64,000 nt of DNA from positions 42,318,035-42,382,034 of the forward strand of contig NC_134831.1 of the NCBI RefSeq assembly GCF_004210375.1. Reading direction: 5' to 3'. A program made the translations under genes and the position numbers. Positions within the stretch are counted from its first letter, which is position 1. Each line of letters starts with the position of its first letter. Positions 31,801 to 49,311 of the stretch are shown one piece after another. The DNA is from Tachypleus tridentatus (Eukaryota > Arthropoda > Merostomata > Xiphosura > Limulidae). The notes beneath the pieces were generated by a model. It made no database searches. It saw nothing but the letters and a program-made list of their open reading frames with translations, and was not told the origin of the DNA.

Positions 31801-34800
31801 CCCTCGAGTTTACTGTTGAGACATCTGTGGGGAAGCAATGTTGAGATAATTTCCTCACTGACCAATTTCTCTCGTATAACATACATGAGAGTATAATAAC
31901 ATACAGAATGCCATCTGCTTGTTTTTTATTTGTTTGAAGAATAGGTAACATTTGTGTAACTAATGTATTCTTCCAAACTATTTAAAAAAATCTATCACAT
32001 ATCTTTCTCATCATCTAATGTATCTAAGTGGGAAGTCTTTGGAGTTGCAGCTTTACATTTAGGTGTTCGATTCCCATTGGTAAATAGGGCAAATAGTCCG
32101 ATGTGGCTATAACAAAACATACACGCACACATACACACTCATCATCTAAATATGGAATTTTTATTTAAAAAAAGAAAAGAGAAATGCAGTTTGTTATATT
32201 TACCATATTTTATTAAATTTGACCACTTTTAGGTATGGTGTAATAAATAAATATTATTGATTATACGATTATTGAAACATATATATAAATAAGTTATTTT
32301 TGGCGAGTATAGGACAGTAAAACACTATATACATACACTAGAGTTCAACATTACAAAAAAGAAATCTGGGTAACCCTTAGGGATTACACTTCCCCAAACC
32401 AATTTAATTATCTCTGTTTCTTACTTCGTTTTCGAAAAAAGATTCAGAAAAATGATCATGATAAAAGCTACACTAGTGCCACCTGTTGTTACTTTGCTGT
32501 TAGGTATATGTGAAAGGTTGGACATGTTTAGACCAAAATACGTTATTGTCTTAAGCACAAGACTGCAGAATTTGGTACTTGCACTGTGTCCCTCGCATGG
32601 ATCGAACCAAAAATTTAGAGTTATAAGTGCTCAAGCTTATAACAAAAAATCATGATTATAAAACAGAGTTTATGACTACTTCACAAAAATTTTTTACAGA
32701 AATTCTAAATTTTTGTTAGTAATTGTCAATCCTACGTTAGGATTTATTTTGTATTTTGATTATAAACTATTTTGATTGCATACTATATCAGTCACTCCTA
32801 ATTATTGTTAAAAGAGTAAGATGATATATGTGTCCTTTAGAAGTTTATTTGAATGTTAATCTCTGTAGTAAATTAATGGAGTCGAACGTGTTTCCATATA
32901 GTTTCGCAATATCTCTTTATCATAAAACACGTGTTTACAAAAGATATTCAACAACTGGAATTCTCAAATAATTTTTTTAAAGTTTTCAGTGTATTATAGA
33001 CAATGGGGCCCAAAGTAATTTGTAGCCTTTACGGCATGTAAAACACATGTGAGTTAAACGGCAAGGTCATTGACCTGTAGAGTTTCTTATTTTAAAATAC
33101 TAATATTCACCACGAGGGCTTTATCTGGATCTTTGAACCGAATGAGTGGACTGATAGAAACTTTTATACTATGAGTCTATATTTGAATTGCGAAGAGTGC
33201 TCAACAGAAAATACACGCCTAGCCTTGCACTTTACGCTCTGCAGTCTGACACGCTAATCATTACATCATGGTTGATCCAAGACTTAGACTTAGATGAACA
33301 TCGAGAATTAGGGTTGGAAATCTAGGTCAACATTCCTCAGTAGAAATTAAATCCCTCACTGATCAAACCCTTGATTCTGAGAGTAGGAGAACTGTGTCAT
33401 TACAAACAGGCACAATGGTTAATGTACTTATTGATACTTGTCTCGCTGGACTATTTTAAACAGGAATAAACATTGAATATTTTTTTTTTAGTTAAGGTAC
33501 TAAAACCGAATGTTTATCGAACCCATTTAATCCATTCAGTTTTCACTACCAAATTGCATCGAAATTAAGTTATCCAGTTCCTAATAAAAACTTATAACAA
33601 ATGTGTGTTTGTTTGCAACCCAATTTCTCCTTGGCTATTAGGCCAAAGTCATCCAAAATTTGTGTGTAAATAATATGAATTGTGTGGAATGTCCTAAGGT
33701 TAAGGGGTCAAAATTGAACTTAACCCTATTTGTATTTTGTAAAACCTGCTGGTTAATCACTCCAAGCCAATTGAATCAATCGTAAGTGATATTAGCAGGT
33801 TGACGCTTTAGACAATGTTGAATATTCTAAAGGGATTCAAAAGTCAAAAAATGAAAGTTGCTGGATTATTTCTCAAACAACTATGCTTTTTTCATGGTTG
33901 ATAAGATGTAGGGTGTTCAAGAGTGGGATCACATCAAAATATATATCTGTTGTTAGATGGAAAGTCAACTGCAAATATTGTTTATGAAGAAACTTTGTTA
34001 TAATTTTAAAATTTTGAGATAAAGTTTATGTTCAAGTTATTACTTATAAACATGTGGTTGCTATTAAACTTACATTATTTAAGTTTGAACATATCCAATC
34101 AGTTTATATATAAGAAAATGTTAAATAGTTACAATGTTTATCTTTTAATTATTCATTATTTCAGAGCTGTGAAATTCACATCCAATTTGTTCGGAAGAGC
34201 TTTGTCTCGTCGTGCGAAATCCACCATTTTGTTTGCTACAGAAACTGGAAAGTCAGAAACCTACGCGAAGACCCTTAGACGAATTTTCTCTCAGGCTTTC
34301 AACGTCTCTGTATGTAAACTCTGTATACACATATCAAAACGTATTTCTAAAAGTAAAGGTCCTTCGGTCCAAAATAACTCATCTAATATAGCGGCGATGG
34401 AAATAATCAAGAGTAAATATTATCTGATTAACCCTCAAACAGCGGGTATGTTGTAGTTAGTAGCATAAATTGATGATGGCCGCCATTTTAGGGTTAACGT
34501 TGCTGAATAACTCTGTGTGTAGTAGATATATTGAATTCACGCACAGTAACTGTGTGTCAGCTCTCATTATCACACGTAATCCGTCAGTGCAGAAGAGATT
34601 TATTTGAATTTCTATTTCCTGTAGTGCTGTTTATATAGTTATATACTAGTGTGAGGTTCGTTAAAAACTGTTACAATGAACCAAGTATTGAGAAACGTCA
34701 AGAACCGTTTATCACGAAAAACTACGAAAAAGGGAGTCTAAATAAAGGAGTGAATACACATTATTTCTTATTGTTGTTTGTAATTAAGTACAAAGTTACA

Positions 34801-37800
34801 TAAAAGACTATCGGTTCTCTGCCCATCACGGGTATCGAAACCCGGTTTTTAGCGGGGGCGAGTCCGCAGATATACCGTTGTACTACTGGGGGACAATTAA
34901 TTCTTATCAAGGAAATTAAGTGTTTAACCAAGCAAATTGAGATACCTGTCTCTCATACAGTGGTTTGTGACCACCTGTCTCTCACACATTGGTTTGTGAC
35001 CACCTGTCTCTCACACATTGGTTTGTGACCACCTGTTTTTCATACAGTGGTTTGTGACCACCTGTTTCTCATACAGTGGTTTGTGACCACCTGTCTCTCA
35101 CACATTGGTTTGTGACCACCTGTCTTTCATACAGTGGTTTGTGACCACCTGTCTCTCACACAGTGGTTTGTGACGAATTGTGATGCTTTTCAATATTTTT
35201 CGTGTTTCGTGTTCATTGCTTGTGTTGTTTACCATAAGGTCTCTGTATTTGTTGTTTGTTTTTTACTTGTGACCTTTATATTGGTTACTTGTGATATTCA
35301 TCACACGCTCCTTATGGCGACTACTCATGTTGTTTATTAAGTCTTTGTATTGATAGTTTGTGTTAATTATTTGTGCCAGTGGTCATCATGCTCTTGTGAC
35401 AAATGTTTACATTGTTTATCAAGTTCTGGTATTGGTTACTTGTGCTATTTAAGTCCTTGTGACGTTTGCGTTATTTATCAGACCATTATATTGGTTGCTT
35501 ATGGTCTTTTTATCGATTGCTTGTATTACTAATAATCAGATCATTGTGACAAACTTATATGTTATTTATCGAGTTATTGTATTGATTTTTTGAGGTCAAC
35601 ATAAAAAGGAGCTTTGAACTTACCGACATCTGCTGTTTACAGGAAACATTTTGAAAACCTGCAAAATTATAAAAATATAACCACATAACTGATTGAGAAA
35701 CAATAGTTATTTAGTGTATTAGAGGTTATAGTAACATACTTGTAGAATAGAAGAGTATGCGTGTTAATCTTCCATGTTTACTGAAATATTTACTAATAAA
35801 TCAACAAGTGGTCAATTAAGCGTGTACACATTTTTTAAATCTTAAAATAATAAGTCTTGCATAACTACATACGATGTTTAATATGTGTACTTTTCTTTAC
35901 ATAAATATACTAATACTATTTCTTTCCACCAGGTGATATGCATGGATGACTATGACATTATACAACTCCAACATGAAACGCTGTTACTCGTTGTTACGAG
36001 TACTTTCGGCAATGGCTATTCTCCTGAAAACGGCCAGGTAAATGAAACCAAAACCATTGTGTAGCGTACATATTAGTACAGTGGTAATTAGATGAACGAT
36101 ACACCAACCAAATAATGGTAAAGTACATTGTTCCCCTCTTAGGGTAAAAGATAAATGACACAACGATCAAATAATGGTAAAAGTGCATTGTTATTCTCCG
36201 AGTGTTAAAGCTGAGTGACATGTCGATCAAATAGCTCTAAAATCTAATGTTGACCTCAGTGTTAAAGCTGAGTGACACGTCGACCAAATAGCCCTAAAGC
36301 CTATTGTTGTCTTCCTAGTGTTAAAGCTGAATGACATATGGATCAAATAGTGCTAACAGTTCATTGATGCCATCTTCGAGTTAAAGATGAATGATACACC
36401 AGTCAAATAGCGTTGGAAAAATTCGAATTAAAGTTACCAATCTCGCACAAACTTTGGTAAGAGGTATTAAACTGGAATCAGTTAAATCTACTTGAGTACA
36501 ATTTTTATATTTCTACACAATACATTATGATTATCGATCTAAATTTTTGTATTGTTTTAATTAAAAAAGGACAACAAAGGTACAAATAATAATATTTCTT
36601 TAAAAACAAGTTGAACACTTTTCAATAGTTGATCCCTTAAGACTGTTAATTTGACTGACAAAATTAAAAAAAATGGATGAAAAATAATATTAGTTGTAAA
36701 TATTCTGTTTATACTGGTAACCTTTTTGTGCGGTGATTTCTAGAAAGGGTATAATGGGATTAATATATAAAATTAAAAGTTAATATTGTTCATTCAAGTT
36801 ATAAATTGTTGACCTATAAAAATAGTTAACAAAGGAATATGAAGAGACGGAGATAATCGTTATCAGAAATACACGTAGCCTGATGATAACACATGCACAG
36901 TTTTAGTATTGCGAAATAATGATGAGTGACCATAAGAAATGCTTCCTTGTCAGTTAAAAGTATAACCCTTCTTAAACAACGTGTTATATTTAGCCAAGCT
37001 GTTTACAGTGACCTTTGCAAATACTTTGTGGTGTGTAAGGTATCAAGGGTTATATTTATTATTTGGGTCTGGCATGGACAGATAATTAGGGTGCTCGACT
37101 CATAATCTGAGTGTCGTTGGTTCGAATCCTCATCCCATCAAATGTACTCACTCTTCCAGCCGTGGGTGGGTTGGGGCGTTATAATGTGACGGTCTATCCC
37201 ATTATTCGTTGGTAAAAGAGTTGGCGGTGAATAATGATAACTAGCTGCCTTTCCTTTAGTCTATCCATGCTAAATTAGGGATGGCTGGCGCAGATAGCCA
37301 TAGCCTTCGTGCAGTTTTGCACGAAATTTAAAACCAAACCTTTATTATTTAATGTAGAAAACACCAAAGATTAGCTAAAACGATCTCAACGACCTTTAAA
37401 AAACATCAAATTCAGTTAGTTATCAATGTATATTCCTTCTTTCTCATGTTGCAACACCTACAAAGCCTCTATGGTTATTCAGGTGCTATGTTTTGCCCTG
37501 AACATCAAGAGAAAAAACAACCATTGTTTTCAGTTCTTCTCAACGTTTTCTGAGATAGCTTCAATTAAACGGCGGATACTTTAGCCTTGAAGTTAAAATT
37601 TGCACCTTATTTGAATTACTAATTTTATTTTAAGAGTTCTACTGCAATATTAAGTGTCTTTATATAAACTCATTCTCAGGGATGCACGTACTTTTCAGTG
37701 AAGTTGTAAGACATTAGAATAAAGAAAATTGAAAGACATGTCCTCGATTATTTTTTTCTAACTGTTTTCAGACTTTTGCTCGTGGACTTCAGGCAATCAA

Positions 37801-40800
37801 AGTCACTGGAGATGTAACTCCGGATTTAGGTTGTATAAGGTAAGACAGAAACAATTTCTAATCAAAGTCACTGGAGACGTTACTGCAGAAGCAGATGTAG
37901 GTTGTGTAAGGTGTGACCGATTTGATATATAATATTTATCAACATATATTTAAAGATGCTTGTAAATTATACTGTTAAATCTGTATTACGAAATACACTT
38001 CCCTAACGTTTATAAAAGCCAACCAACGCAGCGTGCCAACAAACACTGTATATTGTTGGTTTGCTACAGTCGGTATACTATAAACATCGAAAGCCATAAC
38101 TGTCATTAACGCTTATTAATCGGGAACTTGAGATATTTCACCAGAAACGTTTATAAATTTCAAACATTACAAACCATTTAATTAAGTGGATTAACATTAG
38201 ACGTTAGTATTTTTACAAAGACATTATACAACTTCAGCTGTGAAAAACTCAGTTCGCTCATCTTGAGCTCTCGATAAGATATCAAGGAAGTTCCGGATTA
38301 GATAGAAGACTCAATATTGTTTGTAAGTTCGTAAGACTTTTGTATATAAATAACTATTTATAATAATCGTTATTATAAATTGTGATATTGTTTGTGGATT
38401 AAAATATATTTGTATAAAGAAAGAAAACTGTGTGTATCAATCTTGTTGGCAAATATCATAAACCGGATACACATCAACATTTATTTACCTACTAAGTTTA
38501 AATTACGATTTAACTGAGTTTCAGGCTGTTTCAAATAGTAATGTGTAACATAACAAATTGGGGACTCGTCTGGCATAAACCGTAATACGTAACATAAAAA
38601 CTATATACACTGCTGGCCAAAATCTTAAGGCTAATGAACATAAAGAAAAATATACATATAAACGTTTGCAGAAGGCTGGCTGGAATGTTATTCCAAATTA
38701 GTGTAGATAGCTTCACGAAGATCATACACTGTTTGGAACTGATATCCATTTCTATAGACTTCCCTTGCCATCCACCCCAAACATTTTCAATAAGGATCAG
38801 TTCGGGCGAACACGCTGAATGGTCCAAAAGAATCTCGTTATTCGCCATCAAAAAGTCCTTTGTCCTGCGGGCATTGTGGATTGCAGCGTTGTCCTGCTGA
38901 AAGATCCAGTCATTTTCACACAAGCGAGGGCCTACAGTCAATAAGGATGCTCTCTCCAACATTCCAATGTAGCCAGCTGCTGTTTGAGGCTCCAGTATAA
39001 CCTGAAGCTCCATTGTTCCATGGAAGGAGAAAGCACACCAGATCATGATGGAACCTCCTCCACTGTGTAGTGTAGAAAATGTCTCAGGTGGAATATTCTT
39101 ATCGTGCCAATAACGTTGGAAGCCATTTGGAACATCCAGGTTAAATTTTTTTCTCATCAGAGAACAGAACCTTCATCCACTTTTCTACCTCCCATGTTTG
39201 GTGCTTCTCAGCAAAATTTAACCGAGCTGTTTCGTGGTGTGAAAGGAGGCGTGGTCTTTGAATACCTTTACGGTTTTTAAAGCATTTCTCTCGTAGATGC
39301 TGTCTTATTGTTCTTGAGCTGCATTCTGTGTCCGTACGGGTCTTAATCTAGTTCGACGATCGGCTGGTGTCTTGCCGGGCAACCCGTCGAACCCTCCTAC
39401 TCAACGCCGGCGAAATTTTCTTAGGCTAACCACTTGAAATTCTCGTTCCGTATCTCTCAGGGTCTTTCAAGAAATTTGCAACAGCAGTTTTACTACGCCC
39501 AATCTCACCAGCGATGGCACGTTGAGAGAGACTTTGCTTTTGCAGCTCGACAATTCTGATACGTTCAAACTCTGTCAACGTTTTAGCCTTTGCCATGTTT
39601 TTATCCAATGTAATACAGGAGATGTTGACAACGCTAATGCTTGAACACAAATGACTAAATTTCTTTACGTGTTTACTGATTAACGCTTCGTTTCAGTATG
39701 GTCTTAAACTTTTGACCAGCTAGTATTTAGGCTAATTTCATAGTATTCACATTTTCCCTATTCAATGCTAAAAAGTTTTTTATTTTTATTTTCCCTTTTC
39801 TTATTTTCATTTTTCGAAGCTTTACTCAAATAAGTGGTTGAGTCTAACAACGTAAAATTCACATTTTTTCTTTATGTTCATTGGCCTTAAGATTTTGGCC
39901 ATCAGTGTATAATCAACGTCAGTAGAAGGATGATTTGAAGTTCTGATTCTTCATGGTTAGTGAATACTGTCATAAGTACCTAGTTTCACACTTACAAGGA
40001 TTCACACTTCAACAAGAGTTGAAGTTTAGATTTTTTATGGTTAGTGAATATAGTCATAAGTACCTAATTTCACACACATAAGAAAAATGTTGAAGTTCAG
40101 ATTCTTCACGGTTAGTAAATGCAGTCATGAGTACCTAGTTTCACACACATATGAAAAATGTTGAAGTTCAGATTCTTCATGATGGTTGGAAGTGAGCAAG
40201 TATAAGAGCTTAAAGTAATGTGAATTACAACATCTGGAAGACACACATTTAATGAGGAGGTATTTGTGTATACCAAGGTTTGGGTTCCGTATCATTCATG
40301 GTGTTGGTGTCAAAAAAATAATAGGTATTAGGTTTTGCTTACTTTTTTGTAAATGTAAGGACTTTTTAATATGTTTATGCACGATTGTAAAATGTATTTA
40401 ATTTATTTGAAAAGCGAGACCTAATGAGAATATACTTGGAAGGGCTTATTTTGTCTGTATCTCTCTTTCTTTCTCTCGTGTAGAACAACATCCTTACCTT
40501 TTATAAAAACGAACAACAGGATGACAAATCTAGAAGACACTAGTGCTTCACAGAGTAAAAACCCAGCAGGGGAAGACATTGGGCCACTTAGCAATATCAG
40601 GTTAATTAATATTCAGTCTTGTCCAGGTAATTTACCATGTAAGCAAGTCGCTCACAGAACGACTGTAAGATATTATTTAAGTTGCAGGGTTCAGATTTGA
40701 AATGGTTACTCCTGGTCTGGTTGGTTTTAATATTATAATGTGTAAAATTATATGGTTATTTTCCCGTCTGACCAGATATTAATGTGTACAATTACACATT

Positions 40801-43800
40801 TTCTCTAATATATAGAACCATATGGTAATTTTTTCGTCTGAACAGGTATTGGTGTGTACAACCATAAGTCTTCTCTTTATATCTGACGAGATTCTGATGT
40901 GCAGGACAATATGATATTTTCCCCGACTGACGAGATTCTAATGTTTAGAACCATATAATTATTTCTCCGCATGACGAAGTTATAATGTGTAGCATCATAA
41001 GTTTTTTTTTATCTTTGACCAGACTATACAGCAGAACTATGTGGTTTATTTCCTCATATGACCAGGGTTTAATGTGTAGAACCATATGAGCAGCTCTAAG
41101 TATGACAGGATTCTAATGTATAAAACCATGTGAATTTTTTTACTCATTAGAACCTGTTCAAACCGTATCTCCGTGTAACGAAATTCTTATATGTCAAACC
41201 ATATGATTATCTCCCAATTTGAGTAGCTTCTCTGTATAAACTATATCTTGTTTTGTTTTCATACTATAAGGTTATTTGTGTAAAATACTTTCCTTACATT
41301 TTCAGTGTAATACTCTGTGCCTTGTCATCCTATCGAATTAGGTTCTAGTGTGTAAGACCATCTTTTTATATTTCAATCTGACTACATTCTAATAGCAAAA
41401 AGTGTTTTATTTTCCTATCAAACCACAATTAAATGCATAAAATTGTACGTATTATCTTTTTTCGTGTGACTGCATTTTCATTGTAAAACAATGTTTTCCT
41501 CTCTATTTAACCAGGTTTTCTACTAATGTTTATTCCTCCCCACTTAACCAGGTTCTCTGTATTTGCCCTTGGATCCAGTGCTTACCCAAACTTTTGCTCC
41601 TTCGGCTATTTTTTGGATAACCTCCTGGGAGAACTTGGGGGAGAACGAATCCTTAAAATAGGAACAGGAGATGAGCTGTGTGGCCAGGAACAGTCTTTTT
41701 GGCGATGGGCACAGAAGGTTTTCCAAACAGCGTGTGATATATTCTGTGTTGGAGACGAAATAAGAATTAATGACGTGAAAACAGCCGTTCATTTAGATTC
41801 CTCGTGGTCGGCAGAGGGTGTTCGTCTCAAAGAGTTGCATAACGTTGAGATGTCTACTGATATTTGTAAAGGTTTGTTTATTTATTTGTTTTTGAATTTT
41901 GCCCTAAGCTACTTGAGGGCTATCTGCGCTAGCCGTCCCTAATTTAGCGGTGTAAGACTAGAGGGAAATCAGCTAGTCATCACCATCCACTGCCAACTCT
42001 TGGGCTACTCTTTTATCTACGAATAGTGGGATTAACCGTCATATTAAACGCCCCCACGGCTGAAAAGGCGAGCACGTTTAGTGTGACGGGGATTCGAACC
42101 TGCAACCCATTTGTAAAGGTATCACAGACGAAACTAACTTTTTCTTCTAAATTTTAACTTGCATGTTCGGGAAAAAGTAACAAAACTAAATAAATGAATT
42201 TCATGATTTCTGTAAAATATCAGATTTTCCAATAACATCTTTCTTTTTCAGGAATTATTAAAATTTCCACCAAGAAAGTATTTCCTTGTATCCTGAAGAG
42301 CCGACAACGATTACATCCTGTAAGTGACAGGTAAGTATGTGCAGCAAGAAATTCCTAAAATATTTAATGCAATTATAGCCTCACGTATATCCGTGATGGA
42401 TCATTAAAATATATTTTATAAATGTATCACTGATACAGAGGATCGACATATTTTTATTTAAACAGATCCAATTGATAAAGGATAAAACGTGTTAATACGT
42501 AATAAAAATCTTATCGGTATGTAGCGTTGAGAATGTTATAAATTAACAGCTGTTTACATGAGAAACGTGTAAAGAGTTTTCTGATTAGGGATTATTGTAT
42601 GTAATCATTTAGCACGTGTTATTTGTTCAACTTTATTCATTAATTTGTAAATTTATCAGGAGAGAAACAGTTTTAATAAAGATTAACACAAGAAACCAAG
42701 ACGGACTCACGTTTCTGCCAGGCGACCATATTGGAATCTACCCCGCTAACAGAGAAGAACTTGTTGAAGGTATTCTGGACCGTATTCGCCCTGTTTGCCC
42801 CGATCCAGATAAGATAGTACAATTGGAGGTCCTAAAGGTGGTGCCATCTCTTGAAGGTAAGGGTAGCGGTGACATGGAGGGCGTCATCAATATAAAATTG
42901 CTTAGTATAAACCATTTCTTAATTATGAATTTAATTCTAAAACAGCTAAGCCTAAAATACAAACCATTTTATAATGCTTAAACTGCTAAGCCTGAATATC
43001 GTACGTAAACTGTATGATAGATGATTTGAACGTGTCACGTACCTAGTATATATGAAATAATATTTTATTAGCAAACCACATGGTTACTTTTTAACGATCA
43101 GTTTATTTTCTCTTTAAATTAAGATTTTAACCAAGACTTCTCATTTCACTCCAATTGTATGTTCCAGAGAACAACTGTCATTCCAAGACATTCCAACAAA
43201 AACAAAATGTCTGCTTCATAAACATCAATAACTTAGAAGTAGAGTACGTTGTATTATTTATTTGTAAATTCCGAAGAAAATAAAAGCAATAATACAATTT
43301 ACTTTTGAACTATAAAAAACTTAAAATTTATCTTATTTGTACAGTTGATTTTTAATCATTGTTACCGTTTTAAGTATACGGCACCTTAAATTTTGTGTAA
43401 TTATTATCAGGTTTAAGTGAGAAAAACGTGCAGTAATGTTAAACATACAGTGTATATGTTACAGAATACAAACATGTACTTTGGTTAATACACTGAAAAA
43501 CCAAAAACAGATGACTATACAACACCTCAAAAATTATCTATAACATGTAATAACTATTTCGTATTCTTTATTAATTTATTTGAATTTAAGTTTTCTTCTC
43601 TTTCTTCTTGTCAATATAGGCCCCAGAGAGTGTTGGTTACCGCATAAGCGATTACTACCATGTTCTGTTCGCACTGCCTTCTTTAGGTACTTTGACATAA
43701 CAACGCCACCTACACAAACATTTCTAGGACTTCTTAATTCGTTTGCTACGTCGGAAACTGACTGTAAAACACTGCAGTTGCTTACCTCGGTAAGTCTATT

Positions 43801-46800
43801 TAATCAATAAAATTTTATATGACTAATTTTTTTATTTTACTAACATTAATTATGTACTTAATAATATTTTTTTAAAAAATGAAACACGGCAATAATATAT
43901 TAATGGATTTCGAATACAATTAAATTTTTTTCTTAAGCGGTAAAAAACAAGTACTACCTCATAAAATATTTGTTTAGTATCTCGAGGTTTGCTTTTGTTT
44001 CAGAAAAACGTTTCAGTGGAAGGGAGACTGAGTTCTTTTCACAATATAAGTGATAGAGTTCAATCTTAGTAACCTATAACTGCCTTCCCTCTAGCTTTAC
44101 ACTGCAGAATTAGGGACGGCTAGCGCAGAGAGCCCTTGTGTAGCTTTACGCGAAATTCAAAAAACAAACAAGCAATCTTCACAAAATGGGGCTGCTAATA
44201 TAAGCATACTGTCTGATAACGTTAATAGTTTGGGTATGTTTTGATTGATGCATTTTGAGAATCGATCTATTTAATATATATATATATATGTCCAATGCTT
44301 CTGAATTTGTCACATAAGTTAATCTCTTGTCGAGATATCGTTATATCCTCTTACAGGGTTTGAATAAACAGTTGCTAACGTTTCAAAGCTGAATGTAAAG
44401 CATTAGTAAAAATCACGATGTATCAGGTGATATTCTTTTTACAGGACACCACAAAATACGAGGAGTGGAAGGATTATTGTTACCCTACTCTACTGGAGGT
44501 TCTCCAGCTCTTCCCATCAGTTGTCCCGTCTCTTGAGTTTCTTATGACCCAACTTCCTTTCCTACAGCCACGCTTCTATAGTATCAGTTCTTCTCCAAAC
44601 TATTACCCTGGCGAAATCCATATTACAGCTGCTGTAATTAAGTATCGAACACAATGTTAGTACTTGTTTGTCTGTTAGTTATGCATGAATATACAATATT
44701 TACCCTGGCGAAATCCACATTACAGTTGCTGTAATTAAGTATCGAACACAATGTTAGTACTTGTTAGTCTGTTAGTTATGTATGAATATACATATTTACC
44801 CTGGCGAAATCCATATTACAGTTGCTGTAATTAAGTATCGAACACAATGTTAGTTTTTGTTTGTCTGTTAGTTATGTATTAATATACAATATTTACCCTG
44901 GCGAACTCCATATTACAGTTGCTGTAATTAAGTATCGAACACAATGTTAGTTCTTGTTTGTCTGTTAGTTATGTATGAATTTACTATTAACCCTGGCGAA
45001 ATCCATATTACAGTTGCTGTAATTAAGTATGGAACACAATGTTAGTTCTTGTTTGTCTTTTAGTTATGCATGAATATACATATTTACCCTGGCGAAATCC
45101 ATATTACAGTTGCTGTAATTAAGTATCGAACACAATGTTAGTTCTTGTTTGTCTGTTAGTTATGTATAAATATACAATATTTACCCTGGCTAAATACATA
45201 TTACAGTTGCAGTAATTAAGCATTGAACACAATGTTTGTACTTGTTTGTCTGTTAGTTATATATAAATATACATTTTTTAAAGAACTTACTCGTATGAAT
45301 TTTACGAGTCGAGGTGATAAGCCCAGTACTAAAACGGTTAAATAAATAATTACTTAAATATTTTAATTCAGTGCTCACATTTTATAATTTGAAGAGACAG
45401 GGAATCAAACTCGGTGTTCTGTGTGAGAAAGTAGGTAGTTATTAATTTATTTATTACGGTTTTACCAAGGTGGGACCGGATCCTGGCACTACGGAGTTTG
45501 TTCCACATATCTAGCAGCTTTGTCAAAAGGTGAAGAAATAGTTTGCTTCATTCGAAGGTGCGATAATATTACGTGTTATAATACTATAAAACTTTCCTTC
45601 TATAGAAATACGGTTAAAACATTCTACCTGTAAACTAATAAATATTTAGATATTATTATTTTTGTCTTCCTAAATCAGCATTAAAATTATTTAATTTGAA
45701 GTTACTTTTGTAATATAGTTTGTTTTTTTTCTTTTCGGCTCGATATTATCAAGTAACTGTTAAAAGAAACACCTAAACTATAGTGAAATATTTTCATTAA
45801 ACAGCCAGGAAGTTAAATATCTATCTTTGTTTAAAAACAGTGCGCCATACTTTCACCTACCGGACGATATACGACTACCAATTGTCATGGTGGGACCAGG
45901 GACAGGTATCGCCCCCTTTAGAAGTTTTTGGCAACAACGCTTATTTGATGTACAGAAAATGGCTCCTGATGGCAAGTTTCAATGTTTTACTTTGAATTTA
46001 TTTGAATAAAATAACGTGTTTATGTTACTATCATCTATGCATGAACAAATACAATTGTTTTTATTTAGTATTGAAAAAAGATATAAAACATCGACCTATT
46101 GCTTATACCTATTTGTCATTTTTTCTTAGTTTCTTTTACTTGTTAAACTTTTATCAAGAGAAGTTTATTTCCTTTTCTCTAGTAAAAGCTGTTTTGTTAG
46201 TTTTGTATAACATAGTAAAATTCATACTTAACTTACTGTTTTTGTAACTTAACATCATTTGTTTGGGGGGGAGAGTGGCCAGAATGACGCAATTCAACAT
46301 ATATATTTTTTAATTTATTGAATGCTTAAAACAAAATTATGACCCAGTATGGCCAGATGGTTTGGGTGCTGGACTCGCAATCTGAGGGTCACGGGCTCGA
46401 ATCCCATTCCCAGCTGTGGGGGAGCTATTATATAGCGGTCAATCTAACTATTTGTTGGTAAAAGCCCAAGAGTTGGCGGTGTGTGGTGATGAATTGCTGC
46501 CTTCTCTTTAGTCTTACGCTGCTAAATTGGGGACGGCTAGCGCAAATAGCTTCGTTTAGCTTTGTGCGAAATTCACAACAAACAAGTAATAAAAGAAAAT
46601 ATTGTATACGCAGTTTGTTGCTTCTTTTTTAGATCGTAAGAATACTGGAGAAATGACGTTGTTCTTTGGTTGTCGCCATCGGGATTTTGAACTTTTTCGG
46701 GAAGAAAAGGAAGAGGTGTTAAAAGAACATGTTTTGACCACAGTTTATACAGTATTCTCGCGCCTTCCGCAAAAACCTAAAGTATGTTCTTACAGTTTAG

Positions 46801-49311
46801 TTTGCAGAGGTTCAAGAATTTGATTTAAGTATTTTATTTTCCTTTGACTCACGAGCTTGAAATATCGATAATATGTTTTCAAACAGTTTTTCGGACATGA
46901 GTGGAAATCTGTGTTTTAAAAACTGACGTTAACAACCAGTAATCAACCAGTGTATCTAACGAAGATATATAAATATAGTTTTCATTTCAAAACGACTTTA
47001 TCTCTGTATCTTTGTAAAAATTGTTTAGTTTCCTGCATTTGTTTCTATTTTTTGTTTATAACGCACTTAAGGATTTTTGGTATTAAAATTGCACCTGCCA
47101 ACATAACGTGCGTGCCACAGTTTCTCCTAAGCCTATTTTAGAAAATACGTATCATACGTTTGATCGCACAAAAGAAAATTACATGAGCAAGTTAAATGTA
47201 CGAAACCTAGAGTTACTGTAAGATCAACCGACACATAATATCAGTAAAAATATATTAAAAAAACAAAGAAAATTGAAATATTACAAGACCCTGTCTAGTT
47301 AGACGTTGGTTTACATTAGGAAGTTTTGTACAGTTTCTTGTCTATGCAAAACTGTTCTTTTTTTTTACCATGCAACTTAGTAAGTAGTGAATACAGTTGG
47401 TGTCGTACAGCTTCCTGTCTAATTAATACATTTAGTATAATCTATTTTCCTATATAGTAAATGTAGTGAATACAGTTTATATTATCATCATTCTTACGAG
47501 TTATTGCTCTTACTACTTTAAAATGTCTGTTCTAGTTAATTCGTTTGATATCACGTAGTGTCCTGCCTATACATTTACTGGCGAGTTTATTTAATTGAGA
47601 GAAAAAAAGTATGTCCCCCACTGGCTCACCAGTAAGTCTGAAGGTTTGAAACGCCAAAATTTGGGGTTCTGTTCCTATACTGGCCAAAGCTTATGTTGTT
47701 TACTGCGTAACTCAGTTTAAAGTCAAAGATCTACAATAATAAATTATTAATCATTTTTAAAAGCGAATATAAAATTCTAATACACTAAACATCTACATAG
47801 AGATACGTTCAAGACAAACTTCGAGAAGTTGGATCAACCATTTTTAAGAAGATTATGCAAGAGAGATGCCATTTTTATGTTTGTGGCGATGTGAGCATGG
47901 CAGAAGAAGTAAGTCAGACCCTCAAAACCATCATCCAAGATTTTGGCGTCCTCTCTCCGCAACAAGCAGAAACATTAATGATGAATCTTCGAGTAAGTTT
48001 AAATTCCACATTAGTTTCAACTTACGTTTTTGTCTGCATATCACTTATGTTATTAATTATTTTTCACTGCTCTTTAACTGGCTTTTCCACCTCAGTGAAT
48101 AGAAATTATTGAAATGTAAGATGATGTCTCTAAAATCCTGTTTCAAATATTGGAAAAAAAAAAGCACTTTTGCTGTCAGAATATTGTGCCTAATTTAGCT
48201 TCTATTTTACAAGTTAAATCCTGTAATATTGTGGCAATTCTGGAGTCTTTATGCAATTACTGGCTTTAAAAAACCTTCGGCCTAAAAGAATGTCTCATTT
48301 AGTAAGTAATAGAAATTATTGAAATGTAAGATGATGTCTCTAAAATCCTGTTTCAAATATTGGAAAAAAAAAAGCACTTTTGCTGTCAGAATATTGTGCC
48401 TAATTTAATAAGTAATAGAAATTATTGAAATGTAAGATGATGTCTCTAAAATCCTGTTTCAAATATTGGAAAAAAAAAAAAGCACTAAAAGAATGTCTCA
48501 TTTAGTAAGTAATAGAAATTATTGAAATGTAAGATGATGTCTCTAAAATCCTGTTTCAAATATTGGAAAAAAAAAGCACTTTTGCTGTCAGAATATTGTG
48601 CCTCATTTAGTAAGTAATAGAAATTATTGAAATGTGAGATGATGTCTCTAAAATCCTGTTTCAAATATTGGAAAAAAAAAGCACTTTTGCTGTCAGAATA
48701 TTGTGCCTAATTTAGCTTCTATTTTACAAGTTAAATCCTGTAATATTGTGGCAATTCTGGAGTCTTTATGCAATTACTGGCTTTAAAAAACCTTCGGCCT
48801 AAAAGAATGTCTCATTTAGTAAGTAATATTAGAAGGAAAACTTTTAAAAAAGATATCTGAAAGCTGACTCAAACCTAAAAAAGTAATTTTTATCATACAT
48901 CTGTCTATTTCTTTCGTCTTTCTACTTTTGTCTTTATCTGTCTTTCTTCTAACATTATGTGTTACCTACTTGTCTTACTCTTTGTGTCTCTCTCTTCTCC
49001 CACTCGTTTATCTGACGAAGCTCTTAGTCAACTTGTATCAACGTATTCTTTCTGTTGATATTTTAGTATGTCTTTCAGTATTTTTTCTGTCTTTTTTTTA
49101 TAGAAATTGGCTCTTTTGTCCTTTTAATAACCCTAAGAATTTATATTTACTTATTTTTTGGTTACTTTGAAACTTCCATAACACTTGATTTCCACCATCA
49201 CTTTGTTAGGAAGAAAACCGTTATCATGAAGATATATTTGGAATCACCTTAAGAACAGCCGAAGTCACCGACAGAGTGCGCCACGAAGCGAGAACCAAGA
49301 AAACTACATAA
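16790..49311 (+). CDS. NOS: Nitric oxide synthase, 24 coding exons, 1136 aa
   Basis: Catalyses L-arginine + NADPH + O2 to citrulline + NO. Twenty-four exons with consensus splice sites were joined by reading; lengths sum to 3411 nt, an exact multiple of three. Landmarks from M1: zinc CxxxxC (C34, C39); heme ligand Cys122 in [12 protein letters not shown]; substrate Glu299 in GWYMVTEI; pterin-region DWIW (W381, W383) and FHQEM; basic-hydrophobic calmodulin-binding helix about 433-463; FMN loop TETGKS 471-476; long FMN-domain insert about 530-590; FAD motif RFYSISSS 889-896; NADPH motifs GPGTGIAPF 964-972 and YVCGD 1065-1069; short tail. The length is near vertebrate iNOS, but the FMN insert is of the calcium/calmodulin-controlled constitutive type. 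The start is the first ATG in exon 1; an upstream exon could extend the N terminus, since the frame stays open back to the acceptor at 16752. No promoter was recognised. This interval is the genomic span; exons are listed separately. Confidence 0.96.
17679..17821 (+). CDS. NOS: NOS exon 2 (zinc tetrathiolate cysteines)
   Basis: Acceptor tttctcag, donor gtatat. Starts [14 protein letters not shown]; the two Cys, five apart (C34 and C39), are the dimer-interface zinc ligands of NOS. Continues with the helix [20 protein letters not shown]. Ends in phase 2. Confidence 0.95.
18023..18185 (+). CDS. NOS: NOS exon 3 (heme-ligating cysteine)
   Basis: Acceptor ttcttttttcag, donor gttaag. Encodes R78-Q132 including [17 protein letters not shown]; Cys122 is the proximal thiolate ligand of the heme. 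Ends in phase 0. Confidence 0.97.
18445..18890. repeat. Degenerate tandem repeat in NOS intron after exon 3
   Basis: About eight copies of a ~50-60 bp unit around tctaaatatcgtgttgatta and taaatcaaaactaactttta. Confidence 0.7.
19895..20095. repeat. Degenerate ~60-bp tandem repeat, 3-4 copies
   Basis: tactgctactgtatataact, then cacccttgaaggagac, repeated within the same intron. Confidence 0.7.
20461..20552 (+). CDS. NOS: NOS exon 4
   Basis: Acceptor tcgtttacag, donor gtaaac. Encodes [19 protein letters not shown] followed by [12 protein letters not shown], the conserved oxygenase segment after the heme cysteine. Ends in phase 2. Confidence 0.97.
20879..21156 (+). repeat. Family A SINE, full length, with target-site duplication
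   Basis: Best-preserved copy. Head gggcccgacatggccaagcg, then gactcgtaatctgagggtcg and B box gggttcgcatcccc; body and CAAA-rich tail. Flanked by agaatcagg at 20867-20875 and 21157-21165. Internal A and B boxes suggest RNA polymerase III transcription. Confidence 0.95.
21345..21402 (+). repeat. Family B SINE, 3' fragment
   Basis: gagtacagatagcccactgt, then gtagctttttacttgattac and (CAAA)n. Confidence 0.5.
21795..21936 (+). CDS. NOS: NOS exon 5
   Basis: Acceptor atgacctccag, donor gtgggt. Encodes [20 protein letters not shown] through QYAGYRKP and [10 protein letters not shown], residues 163-210, standard NOS oxygenase motifs. Ends in phase 0. Confidence 0.97.
23600..24245. repeat. Degenerate ~55-60 bp tandem repeat, about 11 copies
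   Basis: Unit with ctgcagtaaacaaacctaat and acaaagtgttcttctatatc. It ends about 40 bp before NOS exon 6. Minus-strand frames here are repeat artefacts. Confidence 0.8.
24286..24425 (+). CDS. NOS: NOS exon 6
   Basis: Acceptor tccattacag, donor gtataa. Encodes [20 protein letters not shown] and [18 protein letters not shown], residues 211-257. Ends in phase 2. Confidence 0.97.
24520..24930. repeat. Degenerate ~64-bp tandem repeat interrupted by a SINE
   Basis: Units with taataactattgtaaattaa and gtgtaaaccagtgactcatt on both sides of the family B SINE at 24563-24677. Confidence 0.7.
24563..24677 (-). repeat. Family B SINE
   Basis: atagcaaagcccaatctcgg, then tctaccgcgggaaaacgaac and tagacctactgctatatcaa. 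Confidence 0.6.
25216..25490 (+). repeat. Family A SINE, full length
   Basis: Head cacagccaggtggatatggc, B box gggtttgaaatcccg, intact body and gcgcgaaaattcg tail followed by poly-A-like sequence. Confidence 0.9.
26040..27500 (+). pseudogene. Decayed CR1-like LINE (SGNH-like and endonuclease parts)
   Basis: Fragments in shifting + frames match a CR1-clade LINE in order. 26281-26400: [14 protein letters not shown], then [20 protein letters not shown], like the GDSL/SGNH-type segment found in some arthropod and vertebrate CR1-related elements. 26820-27290: endonuclease-like pieces, including [17 protein letters not shown] and [16 protein letters not shown] blocks, then [13 protein letters not shown] and [11 protein letters not shown]. 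27300-27470: the linker before the reverse transcriptase ([25 protein letters not shown]). Many stops; no reverse transcriptase core seen. Lies in the intron between NOS exons 6 and 7. Confidence 0.65.
27709..27883 (+). CDS. NOS: NOS exon 7 (substrate-binding glutamate)
   Basis: Acceptor tgctttccaag, donor gtaaga. Encodes [20 protein letters not shown], then [17 protein letters not shown] and PHRYNILE. Glu299 of TEI binds the guanidinium of arginine. Val297 and Ala301 replace residues that are usually Gly or Ser (297) and Gly (301). Ends in phase 0. Confidence 0.97.
29879..30140. repeat. ~64-bp tandem repeat, 4 copies
   Basis: Unit with atcagatcaaacactagtat and accaatggagtcagactcaa, ending 70 bp before NOS exon 8. 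Confidence 0.8.
30210..30305 (+). CDS. NOS: NOS exon 8
   Basis: Acceptor ttcttttag, donor gtgaga. Encodes 32 residues with [20 protein letters not shown]. The usual VEIN before AVLHS reads VEVH here. Both ends are phase 0. Confidence 0.97.
30471..30712 (+). repeat. Family A SINE, shortened tail
   Basis: Head gggcccgccttggccgggtg, B box gggttcgaatcccc, body to gctagggcaaagctacatga. The 3' end is rearranged. Confidence 0.85.
30930..31124 (+). CDS. NOS: NOS exon 9 (pterin/dimer region)
   Basis: Acceptor gttttttccag, donor gttcaa. Encodes 65 residues: [32 protein letters not shown] and [12 protein letters not shown]. The two Trp and the FHQEM Phe are in the tetrahydrobiopterin/dimer region. Reading past the donor gives a stop after two residues, confirming the exon end. 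Confidence 0.97.
31608..31708 (+). CDS. NOS: NOS exon 10 (linker, start of calmodulin-binding helix)
   Basis: Acceptor atttactttcag, donor gtaaaa after gttgcaaa. Encodes [20 protein letters not shown] then [14 protein letters not shown], the end of the oxygenase domain and the first half of the basic calmodulin-binding helix. This donor (phase 2) is the one that joins in frame to exon 11. Confidence 0.92.
32035..32135 (+). repeat. Family B SINE with CA-rich tail
   Basis: ttggagttgcagctttacat, B box ggtgttcgattccc, then aatagtccgatgtggctata and acacgcacacatacacac. Confidence 0.55.
32136..34140. other. NOS intron sequence without recognised elements
   Basis: Intron between exons 10 and 11. 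AT-rich; nothing recognised beyond short frames without domains. Confidence 0.4.
34165..34309 (+). CDS. NOS: NOS exon 11 (calmodulin helix end, FMN loop)
   Basis: Acceptor cattatttcag, donor gtatgt. Encodes [20 protein letters not shown] then [25 protein letters not shown] (471-476) is the FMN phosphate-binding loop of the flavodoxin-like domain. Ends in phase 0. Confidence 0.96.
34773..34895 (-). repeat. Family B SINE
   Basis: gtttgtaattaagtacaaag, then tgcccatcacgggtatcgaa, acccggtttttagcggggg and ccgttgtactactgggg. Well preserved. Confidence 0.8.
34944..35175. repeat. 29-bp minisatellite, 8 copies
   Basis: cctgtctctcacacattggt + ttgtgacca repeated head to tail, with alternation of cacacattgg and catacagtgg forms. 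A looser ~65-bp pattern continues to about 35600. Confidence 0.95.
35933..36037 (+). CDS. NOS: NOS exon 12a: FMN domain beta strand and STFGNG loop
   Basis: Twelfth coding exon. Acceptor tctttccaccag, donor gtaaat. Encodes [20 protein letters not shown] then [15 protein letters not shown]. Family members usually read GNGDPPENG, so Asp-Pro is replaced by Tyr-Ser next to the FMN. Both ends are phase 0. Confidence 0.96.
36060..36415. repeat. ~60-bp tandem repeat, 5-6 copies
   Basis: gtgttaaagctgagtgacat, then cgatcaaatagctctaaaa, beginning immediately after the FMN STFGNG exon. Confidence 0.8.
37066..37345 (+). repeat. Family A SINE, full length
   Basis: Head gggtctggcatggacagata, then cgactcataatctgagtgtc, B box ggttcgaatcctc and tail gttttgcacgaaatttaaaa. 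Confidence 0.88.
37772..37839 (+). CDS. NOS: NOS exon 12 (in findings numbering): start of FMN-domain insert
   Basis: Acceptor ctgttttcag, donor gtaaga. Encodes [20 protein letters not shown] and CI, residues 530-552. With the next exon it makes an insert of about 60 residues before RFSVFALG. iNOS has only a short linker here; constitutive NOS has an autoinhibitory insert. Its last 45 nt are duplicated just downstream (37861-37910). Ends in phase 2. Confidence 0.88.
37861..37910 (+). pseudogene. Tandem duplicate of the 3' end of NOS exon 12, with donor
   Basis: Repeats the last ~45 nt of the exon ending at 37839 and its splice donor. It translates in the same frame ([16 protein letters not shown] versus [14 protein letters not shown]) and is followed by gtgtga. 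It has no strong acceptor of its own, so it is probably intronic debris unless an AG just upstream is used. Confidence 0.8.
38606..39909 (-). mobile_element. Tc1-like transposon, both terminal repeats present, transposase frameshifted
   Basis: Ends tacactgctggccaaaatc and its complement gattttggccatcagtgta, at TA dinucleotides; the inverted repeats extend for about 44 bp. The minus-strand transposase starts at 39596 ([20 protein letters not shown]; helix-turn-helix) and breaks near 39420. It resumes in another frame at 39157 ([53 protein letters not shown]). The second Asp (QQDNA) and the ENVWG motif of the Tc1 DDE domain are visible; the usual SPDLNPIENVWG reads [12 protein letters not shown]. 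Not autonomous. Lies inside a NOS intron, antisense to the gene. Confidence 0.93.
39930..40185. repeat. ~60-bp tandem repeat, 4 copies
   Basis: gttgaagttcagattcttca, then gtcataagtacctagtttca, directly after the Tc1 element. Confidence 0.85.
40484..40600 (+). CDS. NOS: NOS exon 13: autoinhibitory-type insert
   Basis: Acceptor tctctcgtgtag, donor gttaat. Encodes [20 protein letters not shown] and a Ser/Asn/Gly-rich stretch ending GPLSNI. The composition and the GPLxN(I/V)RFSVF junction resemble the autoinhibitory loop of constitutive NOS. Phase 2 at both ends fits its neighbours exactly. Confidence 0.85.
40700..41500. repeat. Degenerate ~60-65 bp tandem repeat
   Basis: Repeated gtctgaccagattctaatgt and gtagaaccatatggttattt with heavy divergence, filling the intron before exon 14. 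Confidence 0.7.
41552..41871 (+). CDS. NOS: NOS exon 14: C-terminal half of FMN domain
   Basis: Acceptor ccccacttaaccag, donor gtttgt. Encodes [39 protein letters not shown] and [10 protein letters not shown], ending MSTDICK. The donor lies inside the target-site duplication of a SINE that starts two bases downstream. Reading on into the SINE stops at 41942. Ends in phase 1. Confidence 0.95.
41862..42120 (-). repeat. Family A SINE at the exon 14 splice donor, with 12-bp target-site duplication
   Basis: The 12-bp word atttgtaaaggt occurs at 41862-41873 and 42109-42120, flanking a reverse SINE (41874-42108; gccctaagctacttgagggc, cgccaactcttgggctactc region, ends at cgaacctgcaaccc with the tRNA head truncated). 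The duplicated word contains the exon-intron junction, so there are now two donors: gtttgt at 41872 and gtatca at 42119. Confidence 0.93.
42252..42330 (+). CDS. NOS: NOS exon 15: FMN-FAD linker
   Basis: Acceptor tctttttcag, donor gtaagt. Encodes [20 protein letters not shown] then HPVSD, the connecting segment entering the FAD domain (the SRQxLhxxxSxR pattern). Phase 1 in, phase 2 out. Confidence 0.93.
42660..42856 (+). CDS. NOS: NOS exon 16: FAD domain entry
   Basis: Acceptor atttatcag, donor gtaagg. Encodes [20 protein letters not shown] and [28 protein letters not shown] is the conserved reductase motif. Ends in phase 1. Confidence 0.97.
43620..43789 (+). CDS. NOS: NOS exon 17: connecting domain
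   Basis: Acceptor gtcaatatag, donor gtaagt. Encodes [20 protein letters not shown], then [29 protein letters not shown] is the NOS/P450-reductase signature. Ends in phase 0. Confidence 0.96.
44070..44175 (+). repeat. Family A SINE, 3' fragment
   Basis: aactgccttccctctagctt, then aattagggacggctagcgca and tagctttacgcgaaattcaa plus CAAA tail. Confidence 0.8.
44445..44655 (+). CDS. NOS: NOS exon 18: FAD-binding RFYSISSS motif
   Basis: Acceptor tctttttacag, donor gttagt. Encodes [20 protein letters not shown], then [27 protein letters not shown] (889-896) binds FAD. The last ~55 nt of the exon plus the donor and the start of the intron are repeated about seven times downstream. Ends in phase 1. 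Confidence 0.95.
44600..45280. repeat. ~97-bp tandem repeat made from the exon 18 end and its donor, 7 copies
   Basis: taccctggcgaaatccatat, tacagttgctgtaattaagt and atcgaacacaatgttagt recur with starts near 44604, 44701, 44797, 44894, 44989, 45085 and 45182. The first copy is the real exon 18 end. Six more lie in the intron, most with the donor gttagt preserved. Confidence 0.95.
45470..45557 (+). CDS. NOS: NOS exon 19: FAD domain GVCSTYL
   Basis: Acceptor cggttttaccaag, donor gtgcga. Encodes [20 protein letters not shown] then EEIVCFIR. GVCSxxL contacts FAD. Lengths and phases (1 in, 2 out) fit exons 18 and 20. Confidence 0.93.
45841..45971 (+). CDS. NOS: NOS exon 20: NADPH-ribose motif; followed by a GC donor
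   Basis: Acceptor tttaaaaacag. Encodes [10 protein letters not shown], then [29 protein letters not shown] (964-972) binds NADPH. The exon must end at 45971 with the donor gcaagt: using the nearby GT at 45976 puts exon 21 out of frame with an immediate stop. Ends in phase 1. Confidence 0.93.
46341..46585 (+). repeat. Family A SINE, about 50 bp before NOS exon 21
   Basis: Head gacccagtatggccagatgg, B box gggctcgaatccc, internal deletion after it, tail gctttgtgcgaaattcacaa. Confidence 0.88.
46633..46781 (+). CDS. NOS: NOS exon 21
   Basis: Acceptor cttcttttttag, donor gtatgt. Encodes [20 protein letters not shown], then [19 protein letters not shown] is the NADPH-binding strand. The acceptor is only about 50 bp after a SINE. 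Ends in phase 0. Confidence 0.96.
47610..47700 (+). repeat. Family B-like SINE fragment
   Basis: gtcccccactggctcaccag, then ggtttgaaacgccaaaattt and B box-like ggggttctgttccta. Confidence 0.5.
47801..47992 (+). CDS. NOS: NOS exon 22: YVCGD motif
   Basis: Acceptor acatctacatag, donor gtaagt. Encodes [20 protein letters not shown], then [17 protein letters not shown] and a helix ending MMNLR. YVCGD binds NADPH. The acceptor has a weak pyrimidine tract, but phase and homology fix it. Confidence 0.95.
48100..48830. repeat. Higher-order tandem repeat between NOS exons 22 and 23
   Basis: A ~105-110 bp unit (agtaatagaaattattgaaa, gatgatgtctctaaaatcct, then an A-run of 9-11 and gcacttttgctgtcagaata) occurs five times. 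A longer ~210-bp form adding ttctattttacaagttaaat and gcctaaaagaatgtctcatt is present at both ends. Near-identical copies suggest recent expansion or an assembly-sensitive region. Confidence 0.9.
49210..49311 (+). CDS. NOS: NOS exon 23 (last coding exon; stop at 49309-49311)
   Basis: Acceptor tcactttgttag. Encodes [20 protein letters not shown], then a short basic tail [13 protein letters not shown] and TAA. The penultimate HEDIFGxTLRT motif is diagnostic of NOS. The tail after it is only about 17 residues. Confidence 0.97.

What the first reader, a model, noticed from the sequence alone, without database searches (positions are those of the whole stretch)
41862..42120. SINE inserted at a NOS 5' splice site; target-site duplication copied the donor
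The 12-bp duplication atttgtaaaggt contains the exon 14 end and its GT. Insertion would normally destroy the splice site, but the duplication left a functional-looking donor on each side: gtttgt (proximal) and gtatca (distal, the presumed original). Using the proximal donor keeps the protein intact. Using the distal one adds 23 SINE-encoded residues and a stop at 41942, truncating NOS after the FMN domain. The insertion may thus have created a splice choice.
Basis: partly seen in the sequence, partly recalled or inferred. Interest (0 to 1): 0.75.

Follow-up and report, generated by a model that had tools for sequence, protein, structure and literature searches.

The report
SINE insertion duplicated a splice donor
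A small mobile DNA element jumped exactly onto the end of an exon in an animal's nitric oxide synthase gene, and because the landing site was copied in the process the gene kept a usable splice signal; it probably still makes normal protein, and whether it also uses the old signal is untested.

Summary
A 235-bp antisense, 5'-truncated, tRNA-type SINE (41874-42108) is flanked by a perfect 12-bp duplication, atttgtaaaggt, spanning the end of a nitric oxide synthase (NOS) exon and its GT. The exon end is supported without RNA: three distinct NOS paralogs in the same genome stop at the same codon and phase, with no SINE at the junction. Of 39 GTs between the exon start and the next exon, five keep the frame open; only the proximal one (AAAG|GTTTGT, 41872) has a positive donor score. 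Against 50 homology-inferred NOS-family donors it scores 4.91 (36 of 50 lower); the distal, ancestral-looking donor (AAAG|GTATCA, 42119) scores 2.95 (13 of 50 lower). One paralog exon ends in the identical AAG|GTTTGTTT. Most likely the insertion was tolerated because duplication plus antisense SINE tail rebuilt the donor at the old exon end, leaving the ancestral donor behind. Distal use would add 23 codons and a stop 176 nt before a junction, so decay is likelier than truncated NOS. No RNA or orthologous empty site was available; a splice choice is possible, not shown. It mirrors, at a donor, dog merle's SINE at an acceptor.

The parts
18022..49311 (+). NOS gene, located part: 21 exons, from the oxygenase domain to the stop codon
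   Evidence: tblastn with a NOS probe, exon joins open in two blocks, Pfam NO_synthase 1.1e-164, flavodoxin, FAD and NAD domains
41552..41871 (+). NOS exon whose 3' end was hit (second half of the FMN domain and linker)
   Evidence: nNOS match 5.3e-33; exon end and phase 1 conserved in three distinct paralogs, where this exon is split in two
41862..41873 (+). target-site duplication, exon-side copy, with the exon end and GT
41872..41877 (+). proximal donor AAAG|GTTTGT, hybrid of duplicated target and antisense SINE tail
   Evidence: PWM 4.91, 36 of 50 family donors lower; only frame-keeping GT with a positive score
41874..42108 (-). tRNA-type SINE, antisense to NOS, 5'-truncated at the B box, tail at 41874
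   Evidence: 90.7% to the window consensus, 20 consensus match rows in the window, focal included; 40 scored matches in the genome, focal included
41872..41942 (+). readthrough if the distal donor is used: 23 residues and stop TAA 41940-41942
42109..42120 (+). target-site duplication, intron-side copy
42119..42124 (+). distal, presumed ancestral donor AAAG|GTATCA
   Evidence: PWM 2.95, 13 of 50 family donors lower
42252..42330 (+). next NOS exon, acceptor tttctttttcag

Best explanation
A SINE retrotransposed by target-primed reverse transcription into the last bases of a NOS exon and the start of its intron, antisense to the gene. The staggered cut duplicated 11-12 bp that held the exon end and the GT (shown by anatomy). 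The exon-side copy joined to the antisense tail (GTTTGTTT...) forms a new donor, AAAG|GTTTGT, at the same codon and phase as before, so the SINE is removed as part of a lengthened intron (380 nt instead of 133) and the protein is unchanged (frame shown; usage inferred). The ancestral donor survives 247 nt downstream as a weaker decoy; any use gives a 23-codon extension, a stop and probably decay. The insertion was therefore tolerated, largely neutral, with at most a minor unproductive isoform.
For: Perfect duplication exactly at both SINE junctions. The 21 located exons join without internal stop in two blocks when the proximal donor is used and give the NOS domains in order. Of 39 GTs, five keep frame and only the proximal has a positive score. 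Donor scores 4.91 against 2.95 (n=50), and 3.94 against 2.60 when the three GTTTG donors are left out. The same AAG|GTTTGTTT ends exon 2 of the C7 paralog, with no SINE match there, and the other two have AAG|GTTTGA and AAG|GTTTGG. Paralogs end the homologous exon at D[IL][CF]xG| in phase 1 with no SINE at the junction; in the C6 paralog the join to the next exon reads DICEG-LTKVHNKKIQPCRVLSRVRLQP, against [27 protein letters not shown] here. Distal use would make a 567-nt exon; the focal exon is already the longest located at 320 nt and the next longest is 211 nt. The copy differs from consensus at 19 of 227 sites, 14 outside CpG, so it is not brand new, while the reading frame remains intact.
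Against: No transcript. U1 pairing energy hardly separates the donors (-6.0 against -5.7 kcal/mol), and the score gap is 2 bits. A distal-like donor, CAG|GTATCT, is found at a paralog exon 6, so the distal one cannot be called dead. A low score does not exclude use: one accepted donor of this gene scored -3.53 when left out, close to the -3.78 of the best rival frame-keeping GT. All comparison donors are inferred from homology, not RNA. No unfilled allele or orthologue was found.
Confidence: 0.75

Rival explanations
1. A real splice choice: both donors are used at appreciable rates, and the distal form acts as a poison extension that lowers NOS output, perhaps by tissue.
For: Both donors lie within the range of family donors; near-equal U1 energy; both duplication copies still identical.
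Against: Distal scores lower; the extended exon would be 567 nt against 211 nt or less for the other located exons; 12 unchanged bases at about 8% divergence are unremarkable (0.35 chance for the intron-side copy).
Confidence: 0.2
2. The allele is a damaged or polymorphic one: splicing is mostly broken here and NOS function is covered by the other allele or by paralogs.
For: Three distinct NOS paralogs exist in the genome, one in two loci with identical exon ends.
Against: The reading frame of the other located exons is intact; the SINE copy is about 8% diverged from consensus; the proximal donor is good.
Confidence: 0.04
3. The 12-bp repeat is coincidental and the SINE simply lies in the intron near the donor.
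For: 8 of 14 window copies show no flanking repeat of 8 nt or more in the searched flanks, so duplications are not visible at every copy.
Against: Exact junction placement, and 2 of 4978 random pairs at 12 nt or more.
Confidence: 0.01

Closest known systems
Dog merle allele of PMEL (SINEC_Cf at the intron 10/exon 11 boundary; PMC7349775 and PMC6091007, passages read)
   Same: Antisense SINE at an intron-exon boundary, flanked by a target-site duplication (15 bp) at the original splice site, with two competing sites resulting.
   Different: There it is the acceptor; the competing acceptor lies inside the SINE, its use is proposed to grow with oligo(dT) length, and altered transcripts and a coat phenotype are reported. 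Here it is the donor, the exon-side copy plus the SINE tail makes the new site, and there is no RNA.
Introners that take a splice site from their target-site duplication (PMC9860276, passages read)
   Same: Duplication supplies a splice site at the element's edge, so the element is spliced out.
   Different: Those create new introns, mostly by DNA transposition; here an existing intron is lengthened by a SINE and an old donor is left over.
SINE/Alu exonization (general knowledge; passages on Alu cryptic sites in PMC7349775)
   Same: Antisense element supplies splice signals to a gene.
   Different: Usually a new exon inside an intron; here an existing exon end is rebuilt in place.

Membership tests
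tRNA-derived SINE insertion | Dispersed short family with pol III B box | tested here: met
   GGTTCGAATCCCC retained in the focal copy; 20 consensus match rows in the window; 4877 first-look candidates in the genome, of which 40 were scored. That this motif is a B box is recalled; ARAGORN and Rfam found no tRNA or RNA family in the window.
tRNA-derived SINE insertion | 3' repeat tail and target-site duplication | tested here: met
   AAAC/AAAT tail and a 12-bp duplication at the focal copy. For the family: repeats of 9-12 nt at 6 of 14 window copies, focal included, and at 4 of 7 genome loci by my count.
Splice site duplicated by target-site duplication (merle type) | Duplication contains the native splice site | tested here: met
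   Exon end and GT inside the duplication; exon end supported by paralogs.
Splice site duplicated by target-site duplication (merle type) | Two sites compete in transcripts | not testable with these tools
   No RNA data.
Splice site duplicated by target-site duplication (merle type) | Empty allele with single copy | tested here: inconclusive
   Joined 113-nt site hit only the two flanks of this locus; no relatives of this genome are held.
Nitric oxide synthase | Oxygenase, FMN, FAD and NADPH domains in order | tested here: met
   Pfam on the two exon blocks.

The most novel reading that the evidence does not exclude
The antisense tail of this SINE family, (GTTT)n, is a portable 5' splice-site half: whenever it lands after a G at or near an exon end it makes G|GTTTGT, so antisense insertions can replace or compete with native donors across the genome, and at NOS this has produced a conserved productive/poison choice that sets NO output.
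Probability: 0.12. Interest if true: 0.65.

Novelty: new variant of a known kind. Interest (0 to 1): 0.4.

Why it matters
It is a clean example of how a mobile element can land on an essential splice signal without breaking the gene: the duplication regenerates it and the element's tail completes it. The leftover donor gives a natural experiment on 5' splice-site competition, and the idea that a SINE tail sequence fits the host's donor preference can be tested across the genome.

Tried and rejected
Rejected: chance repeat. Rejected: an alternative exon end; the four other frame-keeping GTs score -3.78 or lower and paralogs support the end. Two out-of-frame GTs, at 41952 (0.18) and 42165 (1.02), score above the distal donor (-0.17) in the 19-donor matrix; I did not rescore them with the larger matrix. 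Rejected as uninformative: dating by identity of the two duplication copies, because 12 bp is too short (0.35 chance of no change). Considered and not supported: a SINE-internal exon between the donors; by eye there is no good pyrimidine tract before an AG in the element (no acceptor scoring was run). Exon 11 (between 36037 and 40484) and the N-terminal exons were not found. The exon before the focal one may start at 40484 or 40520; one search used 40520 and one search used 40484, and this does not touch the focal frame. A first PWM of 19 donors from this gene gave 4.24 against -0.17, and a recalled human-like table 1.70 against -0.05; the larger set narrowed the gap of the first. Of the 31 paralog donors, 28 come from the expected-phase GTs and 3; three further expected-phase GTs at exon 1 were dropped because exons 1 and 2 are fused in the paralogs, and exons with no expected-phase GT were left out. 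In one search the L011 stretch was mis-chosen; the L011 context is. In some searches I saw no paper, in the listings or in the passages I opened, describing a SINE duplication that copied a 5' splice site; most listed papers were not opened, and most subscription papers are not held. Organism: not determined; the 2.17 Gb genome and the SINE remind me of horseshoe crabs, by recall only.

Full report
Observation. The window holds a NOS gene on the + strand, located from 18022 to 49311. Solved nNOS chains (1tll, 8t1j) match the focal exon at 5.3e-33 and 1.6e-32. Twenty-one exons were placed by tblastn and by reading splice junctions. Their joins are open in two blocks of 451 and 572 residues, and Pfam finds NO_synthase, both halves of the flavodoxin domain, FAD_binding_1 and NAD_binding_1. 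At the end of the exon 41552-41871 a 12-bp perfect repeat brackets a 235-bp element.

The element. The same sequence recurs through the window: a consensus from 14 copies gives 20 match rows in 64 kb, focal and fragments included. Copies with heads start close to GGCCYGGCATGGCC, carry a GGTTCGAATCCCCGTC-like stretch and mostly end in AAAC-type or A-rich tails. In the whole genome (2.17 Gb, 205 contigs) the first look gave 4877 candidates; 40 were scored, and besides the focal one the 39 others are 87-90% identical. The focal copy is antisense to NOS and starts in sense at GGGTTGCAGGTTCGAATC, so it is 5'-truncated at the B box. It differs from the window consensus at 19 of 227 sites, 14 outside CpG. 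Flanking repeats of 9-12 nt occur at 6 of 14 window copies, focal included; the other 8 show none of 8 nt or more. In one search, 5 of 7 genome loci gave a repeat of 9 nt or more, of which I count 4 (9, 9, 11, 11 nt) as junctional and drop L008 because its match lies away from the junction. In random flank pairs 65 of 4978 share 9 nt or more and 2 share 12 or more.

Exon end. Four further loci of the same genome encode NOS-like homologues of this exon. L012 and L013 are identical at the exon end, so there are three distinct paralogs. In them the focal exon is split in two; tblastn with the focal exon finds only the first part, and I matched the second part, 133 nt in all three, by position and motif. 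They end GATATATGTGAAG|GTAAAA, GACCTGTGCCAAG|GTAAAC and GATTTGTTTGAGG|GTAAAT, against GATATTTGTAAAG|GT here: same codon, same phase, no SINE at the junction. In the C6 paralog the join to the next exon, across a CAG acceptor, reads DICEG-LTKVHNKKIQPCRVLSRVRLQP, close to [27 protein letters not shown] of the window gene with the proximal donor. This supports the exon end without RNA. A joined 113-nt empty site matched only the two flanks of this locus, so no unfilled copy was found in the assembly. No relatives of this genome are held.

Two donors. Proximal: AAAG|GTTTGT at 41872. Distal: AAAG|GTATCA at 42119. I scored them with a matrix of 50 donors: 19 from this gene and 31 from the three paralogs, placed by homology at the expected phase (what was dropped is told under Tried and rejected). 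Proximal 4.91, distal 2.95, median of the real donors, each left out in turn, 3.79; 36 and 13 of 50 lie below them. Of 4058 + strand GTs in the window 28 reach the proximal score and 95 the distal one. Without the three GTTTG donors the scores are 3.94 and 2.60. U1 duplex energies are -6.0 and -5.7. In favour of the proximal site, exon 2 of all three paralogs ends in AAG|GTTTG(A/G/T), and in the C7 paralog in AAG|GTTTGTTT, identical to the focal site; no SINE match lies there. In favour of the distal site, exon 6 of the C13 paralog ends in CAG|GTATCT. GTT donors occur 4 times among the 19 of this gene.

Consequences. Of 39 GTs between the exon start and the next exon, five keep the frame open through the next exon; the proximal one scores 4.24 and the other four -3.78 or lower (matrix of 19). 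One accepted donor of the gene scored -3.53 when left out, so low scores are a weak bar. The distal donor adds 247 nt, 23 codons and a stop at 41940-41942, 176 nt before the new junction, followed by more introns. By general knowledge that predicts nonsense-mediated decay rather than a truncated protein. The extended exon would be 567 nt; the focal exon is already the longest located (320 nt) and the next is 211 nt. The intron is 380 nt from the proximal and 133 nt from the distal donor.

Mechanism. On the SINE's own strand the order is ACCTTTACAAAT, truncated SINE, AAAC/AAAT tail, ACCTTTACAAAT, as expected from target-primed reverse transcription with a staggered cut. The final T of the exon-side copy can be assigned to target or tail, so the proximal GT may itself be a hybrid. 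Bases +3 to +6 are SINE tail. The tail thus supplied +5 G and +6 T, which the ancestral donor lacks. That splicing in fact uses this site is inference; that frame, phase and donor score fit is shown.

Comparison. The closest known case is the dog merle SINE, antisense at a PMEL intron-exon boundary with a 15-bp duplication at the original acceptor (PMC7349775, PMC6091007, passages). This locus is its donor-side counterpart. Introners take donors or acceptors from their duplications (PMC9860276, passages). An ATP7A retroinsertion paper hypothesizes a cryptic donor brought by the insert, in an exon (PMC12696343, passages). I also read passages of PMC4859970 and PMC6466679; the latter lists an ETn insertion at the splice donor of exon 7 in the T-Wis allele, with several alternatively spliced transcripts. 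PMC6887750 was seen as abstract and outline only.

Verdict. I rate it moderately interesting: a well-documented variant of a known kind.

Noticed in passing
window 44603-45280: The last ~53 nt of a NOS exon (44445-44655), its donor AAT|GTTAGT and ~44 nt of intron are repeated about 7 times in a 97-bp tandem array, so about seven copies of exon end plus donor-like site lie in a row.
   Followed up: no
window 45972: Apparent GC-AG intron in NOS: GATG|GCAAGT.
   Followed up: no
window 18-49 kb; L020-L030: SINE match rows of 150 bp or more within the four NOS gene spans are mostly sense: 17 sense to 6 antisense by my count (two-sided binomial about 0.035, computed by hand).
   Followed up: partly
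window 30461-30691, 37061-37338, 41874-42108, 44077-44171, 46349-46596: The antisense focal SINE and four sense copies in other NOS introns could pair in the pre-mRNA (predicted -124 to -264 kcal/mol, each well below its 20 shuffles): possible editing or circular RNA substrate.
   Followed up: partly
window 38531-39692, - strand: Fragments of a Tc1/mariner-like transposase ORF in a NOS intron (label recalled, not searched).
   Followed up: no
L012, L013 (G000 C6, 134.40 and 134.42 Mb): Two NOS-like loci about 22 kb apart on opposite strands with identical exon ends: recent inverted duplication or assembly artefact.
   Followed up: no
C13, C6 and C7 paralogs: The paralogs have exons 1-2 and 4-5 fused, and the focal exon split in two, relative to the window gene, so introns differ between NOS paralogs of one genome.
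   Followed up: no
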